Shown here piece after piece: positions 10,269-64,000 of a stretch of 64,000 nucleotides of DNA. The notes beneath the pieces were generated by a model. That model did not search any database, was not told the DNA's origin, and saw nothing but the letters and a program-made list of their open reading frames with translations. Positions within the stretch are counted from its first letter, which is position 1. The number at the start of each line of letters is the position of its first letter. This DNA comes from a virus, in IMG/VR virus record IMGVR_UViG_3300010334_000001, positions 1-64,000 of that record, one strand, 5' to 3'. The position numbers and the translations under genes are program-made.

Positions 10269-10489
10269 TCAGTTTTCCGCAGAACAGGCGTTCGCTTGTT
10301 GAGGTTGAGCAGGCGTTCGTTATTTCACTATCCAATGTTGGTCCTCAGGGCATTCCAGGTGTGCCCGGGGGTACGGGTCCTACGGGCCCAACGGGGCCTA
10401 CGGGTCCTGCGTTTTATGCACCAGCTCAAACAGAAACTCCTACTGCACCGCGCGATCCCCAACCCGGTGATCGTTGGATCGTTCCCTAA
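10259..10489 (+). CDS. Short collagen-like fibre protein
   Basis: 76 aa from GTG 10259. The N-terminal ~25 residues are ordered, followed by a Gly-X-Y run (about residues 28-50, [19 protein letters not shown]) and a Pro-rich end. Forms or extends a collagen-like triple helix. First of four collagen-type genes. Confidence 0.8.
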   Translation: MALVSFPQNRRSLVEVEQAFVISLSNVGPQGIPGVPGGTGPTGPTGPTGPAFYAPAQTETPTAPRDPQPGDRWIVP

Positions 10490-16757: not shown

Positions 16758-16785
16758 TCAGGATGCCTTTTATGGGGCATTGTGA
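16758..16785. promoter_or_regulatory. 13-bp dispersed motif, sites 4a and 4b
   Basis: 16758-16770 (TCAGGATGCCTTT, plus) and 16773-16785 (TCACAATGCCCCA on minus) are opposed. They lie upstream of the Dps gene. The stretch ATTGTGAGGCACTAC recurs before the gene at 17360, so the two gaps share more than the core motif. Confidence 0.55.
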
Positions 16786-16821
16786 GGCACTACTCTTGTC
16801 TTTGAGACGAGGAGGGTTCTG

Positions 16822-17265
16822 ATGGACGAGCTTGTGGAGTGCCTGCGCCGGCTGTTAGCCAGCAACGTGGCGTTCGCCTACAAGGCCAAGGGCTACCACT
16901 GGAATGTCATGGGGCCGAATTTTCCCCAGTTTCATGAGTTCTACGGCAACTTGTATGAGGACTTAGACGAAGCCGTGGACCCTATTGCGGAGAACATTCG
17001 CAAGTGCGGTGCTTTGGTGGCCCCCACGGTTCAGGAAATCGTTGCGCCCTCAATCGTGGGGTCGTTGGACCCGGGTACCGATCCGATCAAGATGGCTGAG
17101 GATGCGCTGGCGGCTAATCAGGCAGTGGTTGATTGCCTGTATGAGGCTTTTGATGCAGCCGAGGACGTCAATCTTGAGGGGTTAATGAATTTCCTTGCGG
17201 ACCGTATTGATACCCACAGTAAGCATGCCTGGATGCTGTCGTCGATTGTGGGTCGTCAAGTTTAG
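16822..17265 (+). CDS. Dps-like ferritin
   Basis: 147 aa, close to the usual Dps length. The ferroxidase residues are all in place: H26 (YHWNVMGPNF), H38, D53 and E57, with the same 12-, 15- and 4-residue spacing as H31, H43, D58 and E62 of E. coli-type Dps. Known family members form 12-subunit shells that store iron, remove peroxide and often coat DNA. The N-terminus has no Lys-rich DNA-binding tail, so antioxidant or virion-related roles are as likely as DNA compaction. Preceded by GAGGAGGG. Confidence 0.88.
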   Translation: MDELVECLRRLLASNVAFAYKAKGYHWNVMGPNFPQFHEFYGNLYEDLDEAVDPIAENIRKCGALVAPTVQEIVAPSIVGSLDPGTDPIKMAEDALAANQAVVDCLYEAFDAAEDVNLEGLMNFLADRIDTHSKHAWMLSSIVGRQV

Positions 17266-17268
17266 TAA

Positions 17269-17284
17269 TGTTTCACGTGGAACA
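17269..17284. promoter_or_regulatory. parS: parS-type ParB-binding site
   Basis: TGTTTCACGTGGAACA is exactly the bacterial chromosomal parS sequence (its complement is TGTTCCACGTGAAACA), embedded in a 20-bp near-perfect palindrome. It lies four bases after the Dps stop in a non-coding gap. No ParA or ParB gene is in the window, so a host ParB is the likely ligand. No second copy was found here. Confidence 0.8.
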
Positions 17285-17329
17285 TTAATGCTGCATCGTG
17301 ACCATTTCGTTACACATGGTTAGTCGCTT

Positions 17330-17342
17330 TGAGGCATTGTGA
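17330..17342 (-). promoter_or_regulatory. 13-bp dispersed motif, site 5 (TCACAATGCCTCA)
   Basis: On plus it reads TGAGGCATTGTGA and is followed at once by GGCACTACGCT, repeating the arrangement before the Dps gene. About 17 bp upstream of the next start. Confidence 0.55.
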
Positions 17343-17359
17343 GGCACTACGCTTCCTTT

Positions 17360-17764
17360 ATGGACCGAGAAGTGATCCGGCGCGCATATGCCTGCTCCAT
17401 CATGCTCGGAATCAGAGCCGGTGGCCATGCCGTGAACGTAAAAATTGATGATTTCAGCGTTGATTACGAAACGGTCTCGTGGCGCTGTTTTGCCGTAGCC
17501 AAGGGGCTTCGGGCCGTCATGGCTGACCTTGATATTGCTGCCCCTGTCACTCTTGATGAGCTGGCTGCGTGTGCGCGGGTTGAGGACCGCATGTGCGGTT
17601 CAGATCTTGAGGTCATTGAAAGCGATCTTGACGAGATGAAGAAGGCCGTGGGGGAGTCGATTGTGGATGCCCTGGCGGAACTGGTGGATAACCAGCCGTT
17701 ATTGGAAATGGTTGCGGAGTTCCCCGTGAGCGACTTGATTGAGGAGATTTCATGGGCAGCCTAA
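17360..17764 (+). CDS. Hypothetical protein
   Basis: 134 aa from ATG 17360 (MDREVIRRAYACSIM). There is no Shine-Dalgarno; the ATG may be near the transcript start given the regulatory site just upstream. Mostly helical and acidic, with a long C-terminal helix pair. Not recognised. Overlaps the next gene by 13 bases. Confidence 0.65.
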   Translation: MDREVIRRAYACSIMLGIRAGGHAVNVKIDDFSVDYETVSWRCFAVAKGLRAVMADLDIAAPVTLDELAACARVEDRMCGSDLEVIESDLDEMKKAVGESIVDALAELVDNQPLLEMVAEFPVSDLIEEISWAA

Positions 17765-18183
17765 GTGACCTGAAGCGTTTCTTGATTTCTAAGGACGACA
17801 CTGTTCCTGCGTATTTTCCTGCCGGTAAGGCGGCGACGGCTGCTGGTGTGGGTTCTGCTGGGCTTGGCGCTCTTTTGCTGCAGTCATCTAGACGACTTCC
17901 TGAGCGCACGGTAGACGCCCGTAATTCAGTACAAGGTGCTTACAACTACCGCAGGGCCGTTTTAGCCAACACCACAGGTAAGAAAGCCACTCAGCGCGCG
18001 GCAATCAATGTGACGCAAGCGAAGAACTCTTTGATGCACGCCGACCGTCTTGTGGCCAGTGCACCTCATCGCCAAAAGCTGCTGCGTTCACGCGGGGCTC
18101 TTATGGCTTCAGCAGGCGCAGGGCTGGTGGGTTATGGCGCTTATGCCAAGAAGAAGAACCGCCAGGCGGGGTATCAGTCGTGA
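17752..18183 (+). CDS. Basic Gly/Ala-rich membrane-like protein A
   Basis: 143 aa. Two hydrophobic Gly/Ala helices, at about residues 28-48 (AATAAGVGSAGLGALLLQS) and 115-132 (GALMASAGAGLVGYGAYA), enclose a basic helical middle. The C-terminus is KKKNRQAGYQS. Belongs to a set of similar proteins between the Dps gene and the connectors. Likely a virion-internal or ejected protein, inferred from position and composition only. Confidence 0.7.
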   Translation: MGSLSDLKRFLISKDDTVPAYFPAGKAATAAGVGSAGLGALLLQSSRRLPERTVDARNSVQGAYNYRRAVLANTTGKKATQRAAINVTQAKNSLMHADRLVASAPHRQKLLRSRGALMASAGAGLVGYGAYAKKKNRQAGYQS

Positions 18184-18962
18184 GTCAGAACACTGCAGAC
18201 AAGTATTCGTCGGCCGCGGCTGGTTCAGCAGTAGCGGGTGCTGCGGGTGGGTTTGCGTGGCGTAACGCTGCCAAGCGTAAGAATGCGGCTCGTGTGACAG
18301 TGGCAGAGCACGCCAATTGGCCGGCTGACCAGCGTTTGTCTGAGGTCAATGCAGCGGCTGCCGCGGGAAAGACACGTGAGATCAGGAATCTGCGATCGGT
18401 TGCCTCTCGGCGTGAAACCCTAGCCGCCCGTACGCGCGCGCGACTTGTCCCCAAAGCAACCAAATCCAAGGTAGAGCGCTACACCGAGCCGGGCCGTTCA
18501 GGGTTCTATCCCGTGAATCGGCTTCGAGCTATGGACGCGTCTGCTGAAGGAAACAGGATGCAGGCGCGTGCGTTGGAGTTTGGCGTCAAGGCAAATCAGC
18601 GTGATTCCAGCAGGCTGGGTGCTCAAGCGGCTCATTCAAAGGCCAAGCATGCGGCAGGGCTTAAAGACGTGGCTCGCAGTAGTCGAATGCTTCGTGCGGG
18701 ACGAGTAGGGGCTCTCGCTGGTGCTGCAGGTGCTGTGGGGTTTGGTGTAGCCGCGGAGCGTTCCAAAGATCGTAAGAACAAGGCTCCAGTAGTGGAATTG
18801 AAGCGGATGCGTCCGAATGTGATTGATATGGACCGGTATCGGTCTGCTCGACCGTCTGCCGATGAACGTGGTTCCACGTTGGTTGATTTTCAGGGGTATC
18901 GCAAGCCGCTTTCGGCTAATGCCGGATCTACGTGGCTGAAGAACCACGGGAGGCAGTCGTGA
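18180..18962 (+). CDS. Basic Gly/Ala-rich protein B
   Basis: 260 aa from GTG 18180 (GTGA coupling). An N-terminal Ala/Gly helix (AAAGSAVAGAAGGFAW) is followed by a very basic stretch (NAAKRKNAARV). A second helix at about residues 180-197 (GALAGAAGAVGFGVAAE) is again followed by Lys/Arg. C-terminus polar. Same architecture as its neighbour at 17752; just before the portal gene. Confidence 0.7.
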   Translation: MSQNTADKYSSAAAGSAVAGAAGGFAWRNAAKRKNAARVTVAEHANWPADQRLSEVNAAAAAGKTREIRNLRSVASRRETLAARTRARLVPKATKSKVERYTEPGRSGFYPVNRLRAMDASAEGNRMQARALEFGVKANQRDSSRLGAQAAHSKAKHAAGLKDVARSSRMLRAGRVGALAGAAGAVGFGVAAERSKDRKNKAPVVELKRMRPNVIDMDRYRSARPSADERGSTLVDFQGYRKPLSANAGSTWLKNHGRQS

Positions 18963-20506
18963 GCATTGATTCATCAAGGCCCGTTGAGTACAACGGGTTT
19001 ACTGACACGAATGGCGCTGATGATGAGTCGCTGAAGGAAGCCCTCAAGCTCGGCCCGTTTGTAGAGCTGGGTTCCACGGGTCTGCGTCGCGCCTCGGGCT
19101 ATTTGGATGAGGAGTTCCTGCCTCAGTTGCGTGGCCGTAAGGCTGTGCAGATTTTCAAGGAGATGAGTGACAACGACCCGATGGTCGGTGCGCTTTTGTT
19201 CACCATCACCAATTTGATTCGTAACGTGGAATGGAATGTTAAGCCTGGTGGTAAGAGTGCTCAGGACGCTAAGGCTGCGGAGTTTCTTGAGTCGTGCCGC
19301 GATGACATGACCAACCCGTGGAGTGATTTCATTACAGAAATCCTCACCATGTTGTCGTTTGGTTGGTCGTGGCACGAGATCGTGTATAAGCGCCGCGGCG
19401 GCATGTGGGACCGGGATCCTCGTCGCAGGTCCAAGCACAACGATGACCTCATTGGTTGGCGCAAAATGCCTATCCGCGCGCAGGAGACTTTGCTGCGATG
19501 GGTGTTTAATGATTCAGGCGACGTGCAGGCCATGATCCAGTTGGCCCCGCCTATTTACCGCATGACCACGCTTCCCATTGATCGAAGCCTGCTGTTTCGT
19601 TACCGCCATTACAAGGGCTCCCCTGAAGGCGTAAGTATGCTGCGTAACGCTTACCGGCCGTGGTACATGAAGAAGCGCCTTGAAGAGTTTGAGGCTGTGG
19701 GAGTGGAACGTGATCTTGCTGGCCTTCCGGTAGTGAAGGTTCCTGCGGAGATGCTGCGTGCGAAGGCGGGCACAGAGCAGGCGAAAGCTTTGGATGCGTT
19801 TAAGAAGATGGTTAAGAGCGTGCGCCGCGATGAGCAAGAGGGCGTTGTGTTCCCGATGGCGTATGACCAGGACACGAAGCAGCCGCTGTATTCGTTTGAG
19901 TTGATGGGTGGCGGTGGTGGCCGCCAGTTCAATACGGACGCGATCATTAAGCGTTATGAGGAGCGCATCCTCATGACGGTCCTTGCTGATTTCATTTTGG
20001 TTGGGCATCAGTCAGTTGGCTCCTACAGCCTGCACACGGACAAGACTGGCATCTTCCGTACGTCCTTGAACACGATCGCGAAGTCCATTGCAGACGTACT
20101 GAACCGCTACGCAGTTCCTCGCCTGTTTATGGTGAACGGCTGGAAGCCGGAAACGCTGCCTTATTTTGAGCCTACGGACGTGGATTCACCTGATATCGCG
20201 CAGTTGGCTGGGTTCATGCAGGCCATGGCCGGCACCGGTGTTACGTGGTTCCCGGATGGTGATTTGGAGAACTTCGTGCGTGAGGCCGCGCGTCTGCCCA
20301 AGCTTGATAAGGATCAGGTGGAGATGCGGCGCATGCTGCAGCTGCGGTCGGAAGCAACGGAGTTTGCGACGGCCAATACCGAGTATTTGATGGCCCAGAA
20401 CAATCAAGCCATGGCTGCCGCTGGCCAAGACCCGATGCAGGCGCAGGGCGCTACGGGCCAGCAACAGGAATCTGGCAAAGACGAGAAGCCGGGGAGGTCG
20501 CAGTGA
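18959..20506 (+). CDS. Portal protein (Mu gp29/DUF935-like)
   Basis: 515 aa from GTG 18959, preceded by GGGAGGCAG. The pattern IFKEMSDNDPMVGALLFTI then VEWNVKPGG and LLRWVFNDSGDVQ fits the portal family of this phage type; ILVGHQSVGSYSL and the late helical region also agree. Forms the dodecameric ring at the capsid vertex through which TerL pumps DNA. The C-terminus is Gln/Gly-rich and disordered. Confidence 0.88.
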   Translation: MSIDSSRPVEYNGFTDTNGADDESLKEALKLGPFVELGSTGLRRASGYLDEEFLPQLRGRKAVQIFKEMSDNDPMVGALLFTITNLIRNVEWNVKPGGKSAQDAKAAEFLESCRDDMTNPWSDFITEILTMLSFGWSWHEIVYKRRGGMWDRDPRRRSKHNDDLIGWRKMPIRAQETLLRWVFNDSGDVQAMIQLAPPIYRMTTLPIDRSLLFRYRHYKGSPEGVSMLRNAYRPWYMKKRLEEFEAVGVERDLAGLPVVKVPAEMLRAKAGTEQAKALDAFKKMVKSVRRDEQEGVVFPMAYDQDTKQPLYSFELMGGGGGRQFNTDAIIKRYEERILMTVLADFILVGHQSVGSYSLHTDKTGIFRTSLNTIAKSIADVLNRYAVPRLFMVNGWKPETLPYFEPTDVDSPDIAQLAGFMQAMAGTGVTWFPDGDLENFVREAARLPKLDKDQVEMRRMLQLRSEATEFATANTEYLMAQNNQAMAAAGQDPMQAQGATGQQQESGKDEKPGRSQ

Positions 20507-53095: not shown

Positions 53096-53719
53096 TTAAA
53101 GGCACAACAGCCAATTTTTGAAACTGTCGTTGCTGAGGCATCGTTCATCGCGCTTGCTGCGGATCGTGTCTATCGCCTGTTTTGGTTCCATGCCTCTGTT
53201 TATGAGCACAAGAGCCGTGACTAAACTTGATCTGTTGATGCCGGCTTGGCAGCGCATTAAAACGGTGGCTCCGTTATCTAATGCAGCGCAGGCTTCGGTT
53301 GCAGCCCGGATTGCTTTGTCTTTCACTGTGGGAGTGCAATACCCGTCGTGAAATTCAAAGCGCCTGTCAACCAGCGGTTGAATCCAGTTTCCGCTGCTTG
53401 CTTTAGGTGCCATTGCGTACATAGTGAAAACGATGTCGAACCGATCAAAAATTGGCGTGTGATCTTCAGGGGTTCCTGATTGCCACAGACCAGGGATTAT
53501 TTCGTCCTGTCGAGCAATCAACTGGTCTGTCTCATGCCAAGTCAGTGATTCTGGTCGGACATTTGTTAAGACCTTGCCTTGGTGACAACCACGAGAAACG
53601 CGGAGTCTGTAGCGGCCTTCATGCCTGTATTCTTTTCGTACATATACGGCCGTTCCATACAACTCGCGGATGGAACCGTGGTATACAGCTTCGTCAGTTT
53701 CTCTGATTGTGAAACTCAT
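53096..53719 (-). CDS. Dual-specificity phosphatase-like protein
   Basis: 207 aa. The active-site loop TVLMRCQAGINRSSLVTALV gives C157-x5-R163-S164, the signature of cysteine phosphatases. The usual His before the Cys is Arg (RC rather than HC). FEFHDGY (D125) is a plausible general acid. The N-terminal ~60 residues are extra. It could remove phosphate from host proteins or nucleotides in lysogeny or infection. Flanked by terminators, so it may form its own unit with the gene at 53716. Confidence 0.8.
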   Translation of the reverse strand: MSFTIRETDEAVYHGSIRELYGTAVYVRKEYRHEGRYRLRVSRGCHQGKVLTNVRPESLTWHETDQLIARQDEIIPGLWQSGTPEDHTPIFDRFDIVFTMYAMAPKASSGNWIQPLVDRRFEFHDGYCTPTVKDKAIRAATEACAALDNGATVLMRCQAGINRSSLVTALVLINRGMEPKQAIDTIRSKRDERCLSNDSFKNWLLCL

Positions 53720-55610: not shown

Positions 55611-55896
55611 ATTCCTCGACCGCCTCCCTGGTGAATTGGTCGAGTGCCTGTCCGAGAGCAATGTCGGACAGGAGTGTGGGGATGGGTACTTCGGCGGCGC
55701 CTGCCCAGCAGGAAAGGAAGGCGGCAGCGACCAGCCCTAAGTCAAGGGACAGGTCGATTAGGTCCGGGACGCTGTCAGGCATGATGCCTTCGGGCAGCCT
55801 TTCGGCTCCTAAAGCCCAAGCGGAGATGATTGCTAGGGCGCGCTGGCGTACCTCAGGACCGTTTGATGGAATTGGTGATGAAGTCATTGAGGTCAT
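55609..55896 (-). CDS. Small hypothetical protein beside excisionase
   Basis: 95 aa, starting at 55896 within the end of the excisionase gene. Helical with a hydrophobic centre (DLGLVAAAFLSCWAGAA). Not recognised. May be co-expressed with excisionase. Confidence 0.6.
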   Translation of the reverse strand: MTSMTSSPIPSNGPEVRQRALAIISAWALGAERLPEGIMPDSVPDLIDLSLDLGLVAAAFLSCWAGAAEVPIPTLLSDIALGQALDQFTREAVEE

Positions 55897-56095
55897 CTAC
55901 GAGGATTCTGTGACGGGGCTCAAGACTTCCCGGACGTGATACGTCGGCCGTTGGAAGTGCCCCCGATTTGATGAGTCGATACACGTGTGTACGCGAGCAG
56001 CCTATGAAATCTGCTGCTTGGTTCACGGTCATAAGCTTGATGAGCGGTGTGTCAGCCTGAGTCATAATGGGGATTGTAATGACATCTTGACTCAT
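55853..56095 (-). CDS. xis: Excisionase / MerR-type HTH protein
   Basis: About 80 aa. MTVNQAADFIGCSRTHVYRLIKSGALPTAD, then RHRILVDDLNDFI, is the winged helix-turn-helix of the excisionase family. Start uncertain: 56119 (GTG), 56095 or 56065 (ATG); none has a good ribosome-binding site. Divergent from the repressor, behind a promoter at 56194-56222. It would bend attachment-site DNA to direct integrase to excision, or act as a Cro-like regulator. Confidence 0.78.
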   Translation of the reverse strand: MSQDVITIPIMTQADTPLIKLMTVNQAADFIGCSRTHVYRLIKSGALPTADVSRPGSLEPRHRILVDDLNDFITNSIKRS

Positions 56096-56193
56096 CCTGC
56101 AACTACTTTGGTTGTACACGAAACTGCCCCGTTCTTCCCCCGTTTGATGTGGATTGGTTTGTCGTGCCGTTTGTTACCTGTGAGTACCGTCAC

Positions 56194-57878: not shown

Positions 57879-59039
57879 TTAGGGCTGCCCTGATGACAGC
57901 CATTTAGCGTAGGCGTCAGCGGCCTCGTCTTGTTGTTTAGCGGTTACGTGCGCATAAACCTTGAATGTTGTTGTGACGTCTTTGTGACCTAATCGTTCTG
58001 CCACTACGTGCGCCGGCACGCCTGCTTCCAGCAGCAGTGTTGCGTGGGTATGACGAAGTGCGTGAGGTTTGATGTAGGTCACGTTGGCTTGCTCAATGAT
58101 GGTTTTCCAATACCGAGCCATGTTGGAAGGGTTCAGTGGGCCACCGAACACGTTCGGGAAAACGTAATCGGCATCTAGCCATCGAGCGCCAGCTCGTAAA
58201 CGATCTTCTTTTTGTTTAACTCTGTGTTCTTTCAAAAGGAGGACAGTCGCCGGGTCAATTGTTACTCGCTTAGACAAGCCACTTTTCAAACTGTGCTCAA
58301 CCATGCCGCCGTGCACTTTGACCCTGTTGGTGTGGAAAGTAATCACTCCGGCTTCTAGATCAATGTCGCTCCAACGGAGCCCCAACATTTCGCCTCGCCT
58401 AGCGCCTGTTGCCGATTGGACGACGAACATTCGGCCGTATCGATCTTGCCGAATAACGTTGATAAGCCTGCTCATTTCATCAGGCGACCAGATTTTGGTT
58501 TCGGTGTGACGTGGCCGAGGGATAGCAATGTGTTCTGCTGGTGAATCTCCTCTGAGCCCGTATTCAGTCATGGCATCACGGAAGGCCTTCTTCAGCAATG
58601 TGCCTACGAATTCAACGGTACGTTTGCTTAAACCAGTCTTGTTAACCCCACCTTTGGTCAATAGGTCGCTGTAGAAGCGCTTGATGTCGATTGGCTTGAC
58701 TAGCTGTAGTTGCATCTGACCAAGAGTGTGATTACTTACGTATGAGATTTTTTCTTTGTAGGAGTCAATTGTTGAGGTTTTTAGGTCTTTTGTTAGTGCG
58801 TGGGCGGGCAGCCATTCGCTCAAGTAGTCACTTACGGTGATCTTGTCTCGAGCTGCTGCCCGCCCTACGCGCAAATCTTGGCGGCGTTGGTCACGCCATG
58901 CCAGGGCGGATTCTTCATCGTTGAAGCCGTAGGTTGTTCCTGCGTGCCATACGACTTTCTTCCGGCTTGGGTTGAGTGGGTCTGGTTCGCGCAATACGAC
59001 GTAAACCCGGTCGCCTCTCCAATGAATTCCTTCTGGCAT
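57879..59039 (-). CDS. int: Tyrosine integrase
   Basis: 386 aa, usual length. An N-terminal arm-binding domain, a SAM-like core-binding domain (about residues 65-165, VSDYLSEWLPAHA) and the catalytic domain are in order. Catalytic residues: R214 (SATGARRGE), H326 and R329 (HALRHTH), H352 (LGH) and Tyr362 (FKVYAH). Recombines attP with the host tRNA-Met site. It reads leftward toward attP, with five small genes between. Confidence 0.95.
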   Translation of the reverse strand: MPEGIHWRGDRVYVVLREPDPLNPSRKKVVWHAGTTYGFNDEESALAWRDQRRQDLRVGRAAARDKITVSDYLSEWLPAHALTKDLKTSTIDSYKEKISYVSNHTLGQMQLQLVKPIDIKRFYSDLLTKGGVNKTGLSKRTVEFVGTLLKKAFRDAMTEYGLRGDSPAEHIAIPRPRHTETKIWSPDEMSRLINVIRQDRYGRMFVVQSATGARRGEMLGLRWSDIDLEAGVITFHTNRVKVHGGMVEHSLKSGLSKRVTIDPATVLLLKEHRVKQKEDRLRAGARWLDADYVFPNVFGGPLNPSNMARYWKTIIEQANVTYIKPHALRHTHATLLLEAGVPAHVVAERLGHKDVTTTFKVYAHVTAKQQDEAADAYAKWLSSGQP

Positions 59040-63109: not shown

Positions 63110-63589
63110 TCAGACTCCTGTCATGGCTTGAAGCGCGGCCACGTATTCGGCCGGGTTTCCGGGCACGACGATGGTGTTGTTGGTGATTTGCTTTCCTGTT
63201 GTTGCGTCCTCAAGTCCCAGCAGTTTGGATCGATGGGTCATGATTTTTAGGACGCTTTCAACTGAACGCGAGTCGCCTGCCATGGCGGCCGGCCACACAG
63301 CCCTTTGCAGGGCATCTAGCCTGTTGAGTTCCACTGTCAACATTTGATGCTTTGCGCTTTCATCTACAAGCGTGGCTGCATATCGAATAGCTTCAGAAAC
63401 AAGCCCGGCAGCTGCTGTCTCAGTGATCTTTAGGGCTTCGGCTATCTGCCACCACGTTTGGCCTTCAAGACGCAGGTCGTGGGCCTTCTTAGCAAGCTTT
63501 GCTCGCTGCTCGGCTTCGTTGGCTTCAGACAGAGCTTTGTTTGTACGAGCCAATGCTTTGGAGGTGGTGGTGCTTTTTCTGGCCGTCAT
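63110..63589 (-). CDS. Small terminase-like protein (TerS candidate)
   Basis: 159 aa from ATG 63589 (ATGA coupling; ATG 63598 is an alternative). A Lys-rich N-terminus precedes a helix-turn-helix (DLRLEGQTWWQIAEALKITE). A helical core (LNRLDALQRAVWPAAMAGDS, VESVLKIMTHRSKLLGLED) follows, as in small terminase subunits of actinophages. It would recognise pac/cos DNA and hand it to TerL. Confidence 0.7.
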   Translation of the reverse strand: MTARKSTTTSKALARTNKALSEANEAEQRAKLAKKAHDLRLEGQTWWQIAEALKITETAAAGLVSEAIRYAATLVDESAKHQMLTVELNRLDALQRAVWPAAMAGDSRSVESVLKIMTHRSKLLGLEDATTGKQITNNTIVVPGNPAEYVAALQAMTGV

Positions 63590-63891
63590 GCTGGCCATCC
63601 GTCTTTTACAGCCTGTATGGCTGCTTTGATGGTTTTGTATTCCTTCATGACTGCGCGTCGCTCACGCTCGTCAAGACCACCCCAAATTCCCCAATATTCG
63701 CGGGTAATGAGGCTGTGCTCAAGGCAATTGAATTGCACAGGGCATTTCTTGCAGATGTCTTTTGCTTGAGCTCTTTCAGTATGGGTGAGGGGGTGTTCTT
63801 CGGTGCCGTAGAAGACTTCTACGGGGACGGTGGTGCATCCTGCGTCGTCAAGCCATGAGTCCCTTGGCGTGGAGGGCAAGGCAAGTAGCAT
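63586..63891 (-). CDS. WhiB-family iron-sulphur regulator
   Basis: About 101 aa from ATG 63891; a GTG at 63980 is possible but would overlap the upstream gene heavily. The four cluster-binding Cys are C19, C47, C50 and C56 (CKKCPVQFNC), followed by the G(I)WGG turn (YWGIWGGLDERERR) and a basic C-terminus. WhiB proteins bind sigma factors and are specific to actinobacteria and their phages. Phage versions can block host WhiB function or superinfection. Confidence 0.93.
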   Translation of the reverse strand: MLLALPSTPRDSWLDDAGCTTVPVEVFYGTEEHPLTHTERAQAKDICKKCPVQFNCLEHSLITREYWGIWGGLDERERRAVMKEYKTIKAAIQAVKDGWPA

Positions 63892-64000
63892 CGATGGCGT
63901 CTTGGCTGGTGCACTTGGCGTACCAGATCGGGTGATGAAGAAGGAGCCAGGATGCGACTTCTTCTTTGTTCGAGTTGCCACGTCCGGTTACCGCCTTTTT
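63848..64000 (-). CDS. RuvC-like Holliday junction resolvase, C-terminal part
   Basis: Only the last ~50 residues are in the window (frame open at the right edge). KAVTGRGNSNKEEVASWLLL and SQDAIDATCLALHA correspond to the VTGRGxAxKxQV and DAxDAxAxAxxH end of RuvC. Would resolve branched DNA before packaging. Overlaps the WhiB gene. Confidence 0.75.
   Translation of the reverse strand, partial: KKAVTGRGNSNKEEVASWLLLHHPIWYAKCTSQDAIDATCLALHAKGLMA

What the first reader, a model, noticed from the sequence alone, without database searches (positions are those of the whole stretch)
17269..17284. Canonical bacterial parS site in a phage genome
TGTTTCACGTGGAACA is identical to the chromosomal parS consensus bound by ParB in most bacteria, including actinobacteria, and sits in a near-perfect 20-bp palindrome in a 94-bp gap. 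No parA/parB is in the window and the phage integrates by a tyrosine integrase, so ordinary plasmid-type partition is not the obvious reason. Host ParB could load here and spread along phage DNA. It might condense it, position it at the cell pole, or silence or activate the flanking genes.
Basis: partly seen in the sequence, partly recalled or inferred. Interest (0 to 1): 0.82.

Follow-up and report, generated by a model that had tools for sequence, protein, structure and literature searches.

The report
Host centromere site in phage DNA
This bacterial virus carries, just upstream of its particle-building genes, an exact copy of the site that its host's chromosome-segregation protein ParB recognises; related viruses keep the site although none encodes ParB, so the virus probably borrows the host's segregation protein, as the Bacillus phage phi29 is reported to do.

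Summary
TGTTTCACGTGGAACA lies once at 17269-17284, in a 22-bp near-palindrome, in a 94-bp gap between a Dps-like gene and the virion operon. A Markov estimate gives 5e-5 expected copies. The record (70,449 bp) and two collinear ~69-kb relatives have no ParB_N, HTH_ParB or ParA-type match, but each encodes an integrase and WhiB, which points to an actinobacterial host.

Five diverged sequence versions from one clade keep a parS-like site at the same place, always 54-55 bp upstream of a conserved promoter-like GTGARGC motif. It is the best-conserved stretch of the gap, and every version keeps at least one intact half-site GTTTCAC. Sister phages lack it there, but 4 of 27 carry a perfect parS core elsewhere (0.014 expected). 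ParS is also strongly enriched in viral contigs and cultured phages, usually without ParB.

I conclude that it is a genuine parS recruiting host ParB. Binding itself is untested. Whether its main role is DNA positioning or control of the virion promoter is open. The closest precedent is phage phi29, which has four copies of the identical 16-mer and whose DNA is reported to enter spores through host ParB (Spo0J). New variant of a known kind.

The parts
17269..17284 (+). parS 16-mer TGTTTCACGTGGAACA; contains both half-sites GTTTCAC (+) and GTTCCAC (-)
   Evidence: sole copy in the 70,449-bp record
17266..17287 (.). 22-bp near-palindrome TAATGTTTCACGTGGAACATTA around the parS; the flanks beyond the 16-mer are not conserved in relatives
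   Evidence: sequence; alignment
17339..17353 (+). promoter-like motif GTGAGGCACTACGCT (extended -10 of TAnnnT type, no -35 consensus); conserved 54-55 bp after the parS in five sequence versions
   Evidence: no sigma-70 consensus; promoter role inferred
16782..16796 (+). second copy of the promoter-like motif (GTGAGGCACTACTCT), upstream of the Dps gene, without a parS
16822..17265 (+). Dps-like ferritin gene directly upstream of the site; present at this place in L179 but not in L180, L182 or L230
   Evidence: Pfam PF00210, E 4.5e-22
17360..17764 (+). first gene downstream (start ATG 17360; homologue in L179)
17752..18183 (+). small gene of the virion operon; relatives have a comparable gene at this place
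18932..20506 (+). portal protein, used to find relatives and build the tree
   Evidence: PF06074, E 1.9e-33
57879..59039 (-). tyrosine integrase (45-46% identical in G002 and G004)
63586..63981 (-). WhiB-family regulator: evidence for an actinobacterial host, and one candidate phage-encoded regulator
55853..56119 (-). small HTH_17 protein conserved in G002 and G004; the other candidate phage-encoded binder

Best explanation
The 16-mer is a functional parS. After the phage DNA enters an actinobacterial cell, the host's own chromosomal ParB, a CTP-dependent sliding clamp, loads here and spreads over the neighbouring phage DNA, including the promoter of the virion operon. This brings the phage genome into the host's ParB/ParA and SMC-loading system. 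Shown here: the site is exact, is kept at one place and spacing across a diverged clade, recurs in relatives, and the phage has no recognisable ParB of its own. Inferred: ParB binding, loading and spreading. For the main benefit I give about 0.45 to handling of phage DNA (placement, condensation, inheritance, as for phi29 and SGI1), about 0.40 to control of the adjacent virion promoter, and 0.15 to something else.
For: Exact 16-mer against 5e-5 expected. Syntenic versions in L178, L179, L180, L181/L182 and L230. Thirteen of the 16 columns ATGTTTCACGTGGAAC are invariant, the best window of the gap. Spacing of 54-55 bp to the promoter-like motif in all. The bearers form one clade, support 90/93, 0 of 500 shuffles. 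At least one intact GTTTCAC half-site in every version; several chromosomal ParBs bind such half-sites (PMC7022226). No ParB or ParA domains in the phage. Four of 27 non-clade relatives carry a perfect 14-mer core elsewhere, 0.014 expected. Cultured phages: 241 records against 7 for a control. phi29 has four identical 16-mers and is reported to be entrapped in spores by Spo0J. WhiB supports an actinobacterial host; C. glutamicum ParB uses B. subtilis-like parS, and one site suffices (PMC7083940).
Against: No binding data and no identified host, so the host's own parS sequence is unknown. G002, G004 and L179 have one mismatch in the inner CACGTG of the 14-bp core, which might weaken ParB binding. 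Most phages in the wider portal family lack any site. Ectopic parS sites disturb chromosome segregation (PMC7083940), so a strong site in an integrated prophage should be costly. Absence of ParB rests on HMM searches; a very diverged ParB could be missed.
Confidence: 0.75

Rival explanations
1. Same binding, but the selected function is transcriptional: host ParB at about -83 regulates the virion-operon promoter. A likely form is a copy-number switch: ParB clamps repress the promoter on a single prophage or early genome, and replication raises the number of parS copies, dilutes ParB and releases the promoter.
For: Spacing to the promoter motif fixed at 54-55 bp in diverged lineages while the upstream gene changes; the motif has no -35 consensus; only one of its two intergenic copies has a parS; P. 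aeruginosa ParB represses the promoters next to parS3 and parS4 (PMC5521831; PMC7022226).
Against: ParB effects on transcription are small or absent in B. subtilis and S. pneumoniae. Sites in other relatives lie inside genes (G016, G074) or at other genes (G084, G071). The direction of the effect is unknown.
Confidence: 0.35
2. The element is the operator of a phage-encoded regulator (the conserved HTH_17 protein, WhiB or an unrecognised protein) of the virion promoter, and its identity with parS is incidental.
For: Promoter-linked position and fixed spacing; conserved phage regulators exist; variants depart from parS in the inner CACGTG in three versions.
Against: The window version is identical to the 16-mer found four times in phi29 and enriched across unrelated phages; each genome of the clade has a single site, not the repeated operators usual for phage repressors; perfect cores occur elsewhere in relatives.
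Confidence: 0.15
3. It acts in RNA or as coding sequence: a terminator hairpin, or a short leader peptide starting at ATG 17268 (MFHVEH).
For: The window sequence can form a hairpin, and ATGTTTCA is invariant.
Against: Folding is no better than shuffles in any of five versions (z between -1.1 and +0.8); no terminator-like site; the pairing flanks are not conserved and substitutions are mostly non-synonymous (sequence).
Confidence: 0.03
4. Chance occurrence or assembly contamination with host DNA.
For: Metagenomic contig with no isolate.
Against: Expected 5e-5 copies; syntenic in independent contigs among phage genes; one clade.
Confidence: 0.02

Closest known systems
Bacillus phage phi29 and its relatives with host Spo0J (ParB)
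   Same: Phage without ParB carrying the identical 16-mer; phi29 has four exact copies plus one near match. Spore entrapment of its chromosome by Spo0J is reported (Meijer et al. 2005, cited in PMC9437464).
   Different: phi29 is virulent, 19 kb, with several sites, at least one inside a virion gene, in a sporulating Firmicute. Here there is a single intergenic site at a fixed distance from a virion promoter, in a ~70-kb integrase-bearing phage of a probable actinobacterium.
SGI1 parS-like sites hijacking the IncC plasmid ParABS (PMC10954446)
   Same: A mobile element carries mimics of another replicon's parS and uses that replicon's ParB for its own stability.
   Different: Target is a helper plasmid's ParB, not the chromosomal ParB; SGI1 is an integrative mobilizable island, not a phage.
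P. aeruginosa chromosomal parS3/parS4 promoter repression by ParB (PMC5521831)
   Same: Intergenic parS upstream of promoters that ParB represses.
   Different: Chromosomal genes, not phage.
Chromosomal parS of Corynebacterium glutamicum (PMC7083940)
   Same: Actinobacterial ParB with B. subtilis-like 16-bp parS; a single site is enough for segregation and a broad ParB zone.
   Different: Clustered near oriC in the chromosome.

Membership tests
Chromosomal-type parS site | Match to the TGTTNCACGTGNAACA-type 16-bp consensus | tested here: met
   Exact 16-mer, identical to the phi29 copies; one substitution from TGTTTCACGTGAAACA (consensus in PMC10197239)
Chromosomal-type parS site | Bound by ParB with CTP-dependent loading and spreading | not testable with these tools
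   Needs biochemistry or ChIP
Chromosomal-type parS site | Maintained by selection | tested here: met
   Kept in all seven examined clade members; best-conserved window of the gap
Self-contained phage or plasmid parABS cassette | parA and parB encoded on the same element | tested here: not met
   No PF02195, PF17762 or PF13614 match in G000, G002 or G004
phi29-type phage use of host ParB | Exact parS in a phage lacking ParB | tested here: met
phi29-type phage use of host ParB | Host ParB needed for the fate of phage DNA in the cell | not testable with these tools
   Needs a host delta-parB infection assay
phi29-type phage use of host ParB | Several sites spread over the genome | tested here: not met
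   Single site in G000, G002 and G004
Phage promoter operator for a phage-encoded regulator | Repeated copies at several phage promoters | tested here: not met
   One copy per genome; the second promoter-like motif copy has none

The most novel reading that the evidence does not exclude
The phage uses host ParB as a transcription factor for its virion operon: a single parS at a fixed position near -83 makes the late promoter respond to the ratio of ParB to phage genome copies, or to host cell-cycle state, so that structural genes are tied to replication of the phage genome through a host segregation protein.
Probability: 0.3. Interest if true: 0.8.

Novelty: new variant of a known kind. Interest (0 to 1): 0.62.

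Why it matters
Phages depend on where their DNA sits in the cell and on when late genes fire. A conserved parS in phages without ParB implies that the host's chromosome-segregation clamp is a host factor for many phages, including ones without spores to hide in. The work gives a defined site, a defined promoter and several natural sequence variants to test. Together with the enrichment in viral contigs and cultured phages, it turns the single phi29 case into a testable general question: why do so many phages carry the host's centromere?

Tried and rejected
Chance and host contamination: rejected. Own parABS cassette: no ParA or ParB domains. Terminator or RNA structure: not supported. Nucleotide search of the window against cultured phages: no match. 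Terminase protein against cultured phages: no match. Host finding by portal in genome contigs gave only two MAG contigs labelled Acidobacteria and Bryobacteraceae at 61% and 44% identity; set aside because WhiB and the Gordonia-phage-like DnaE polymerase point to Actinobacteria. The genome search does not draw kin of a virus record, so actinobacterial chromosomes could not be scanned for their own parS. Arthrobacter and Microbacterium phages with the nearest cultured portals have no parS in the stretches read. The two intragenic sites in relatives (G016, G074) were kept as counts but not used to argue promoter linkage. Literature searches found no study of parS in actinobacteriophages; the library lacks most subscription journals and all preprints.

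Full report
Observation. TGTTTCACGTGGAACA is present exactly once, at 17269-17284 (+), with no other site up to 3 mismatches in the window and none up to 2 mismatches in the whole 70,449-bp IMG/VR record. It is the core of a 22-bp palindrome with one mismatched pair (17266-17287) and sits 3 bp after the stop codon of a Dps-like ferritin gene (PF00210) and 75 bp before ATG 17360 of the next gene, in a 94-bp gap. A third-order Markov model of the window predicts 5e-5 exact copies.

The record. It is a tailed phage: terminase, Mu-type portal, major head protein and tape measure, a DnaB-type helicase, a DnaE-type polymerase and a tyrosine integrase. A WhiB protein points to an actinobacterial host: in the control genomes WhiB rang only in Corynebacterium. 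The nearest cultured polymerase is from Gordonia phages (34.8%) and, apart from one human faecal metagenomic record (45.5%), the nearest portals in the phage collection are from Arthrobacter phages (about 44%). The host species is unknown. No ParB_N, HTH_ParB or ParA-type AAA_31 match was found in the record.

Conservation. Portal homologues from viral contigs were scanned for parS. Versions occur at the same place in L178 (identical), L179 (TGTTTCATGTGAAACC), L180 (TGTTTCACGGGGAACC), L181/L182 (TGTTTCACGAGGAACC) and L230 (TGTTTCACGTGGAACC). The gene upstream differs (Dps in the window and L179, others in the rest), yet the distance from the site to a conserved GTGARGC motif is 54 or 55 bp in all (L179 reads ATGAGGC). 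In the alignment of the gap, 13 of 16 columns of ATGTTTCACGTGGAAC are invariant among five versions, the highest of any window; 37 of all 180 columns are. Every version keeps at least one intact GTTTCAC half-site. Two relatives are near-complete and collinear, circularly permuted genomes of 69,238 and 68,413 bp with 60-62.5% G+C against 55%, with integrases only 45-46% identical, so the site has survived large divergence. On a portal tree the seven bearers form one clade (90/93; 1 change; 0 of 500 shuffles).

Wider family and wider phages. At most one mismatch in the 14-bp core: 9 of 30 records, of which three belong to the clade; four of the 27 others have perfect cores elsewhere (G016, G071, G074, G084), against 0.014 expected. 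Two of these are inside genes; the one in G084 lies about 10 bp upstream of the dnaE-type polymerase gene. Of 48 such contigs, 44 have no ParB_N match and 17 of those 44 have a large terminase by one profile. Some may be host fragments, and many sites are intragenic, so these counts are an upper view of phage use. Among cultured phages a padded 22-mer matched 241 records, a reversed control 7; records include duplicates and families, so the number is not independent events. phi29 itself has four exact copies and one near copy.

Mechanism. The identity with the widely shared chromosomal site, the absence of phage ParB and the recurrence of the site in unrelated phages make host ParB the likely ligand. 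Binding is not shown. If the motif GTGAGGCACTACGCT is an extended -10 (TAnnnT), transcription would start near ATG 17360, a leaderless message of the kind common in actinobacteria (general knowledge); the parS is then centred near -83, and the same holds for L179 (sequence; inference). Two uses remain open. DNA handling is favoured by phi29, whose entrapment in spores is attributed to Spo0J (PMC9437464), by SGI1 (PMC10954446), by ParB-dependent SMC loading in C. glutamicum (PMC7083940) and by variable positions elsewhere in the family. Promoter control is favoured by the fixed spacing, the lack of a -35 consensus and ParB repression of parS3/parS4 promoters in P. aeruginosa (PMC5521831). An ectopic parS in an integrated prophage should be costly, which would favour use during infection, weak sites, or integration near oriC.

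Verdict. A genuine, conserved phage-borne parS without ParB: a new variant of the phi29-type kind, with an unusual fixed link to the virion promoter.

Noticed in passing
L045 / G043 (IMGVR_UViG_3300037518_000322, 116,662 bp), 91,700-112,400: 24 perfect parS cores in about 21 kb, mostly in the short gaps between consecutive reverse-strand genes, just before the ribosome-binding site of the next gene. A Soj-like ParA gene lies beside the first copy, but no ParB_N or HTH_ParB match was found. It looks like a phage or phage-plasmid with its own ParA and a parS array but no recognised ParB.
   Followed up: partly
L368 (Pseudomonas phage phiPsa374, 388-407) and other listed Otagovirus-like records: An extended parS lies inside the direct terminal repeat, so the linear genome carries one copy near each end.
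   Followed up: no
L369 (phi29): Four exact TGTTTCACGTGGAACA copies at 10445, 15903, 17243 and 18760 in a 19.3-kb genome.
   Followed up: partly
L363 (G084) 2950-2963 and L364 (G077) 2007-2020: A perfect parS about 10 bp upstream of a dnaE-type polymerase gene in one relative, and a one-mismatch site (GTTTCCCGTGAAAC) about 10 bp upstream of the large terminase gene in another.
   Followed up: no
window 16822-17265 and L123-L177: Dps-like ferritin genes recur in viral contigs and, in several portal relatives, lie a few kilobases upstream of the portal.
   Followed up: no
window 16782 and 17339; G002 16186 and 20131; G004 30498 and 35077: Promoter-like motif RTGARGCNYTA recurs at two intergenic places per genome; only the copy before the virion operon has a parS.
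   Followed up: partly
window 53096-53719 (-): Dual-specificity-phosphatase-like protein in the phage.
   Followed up: no
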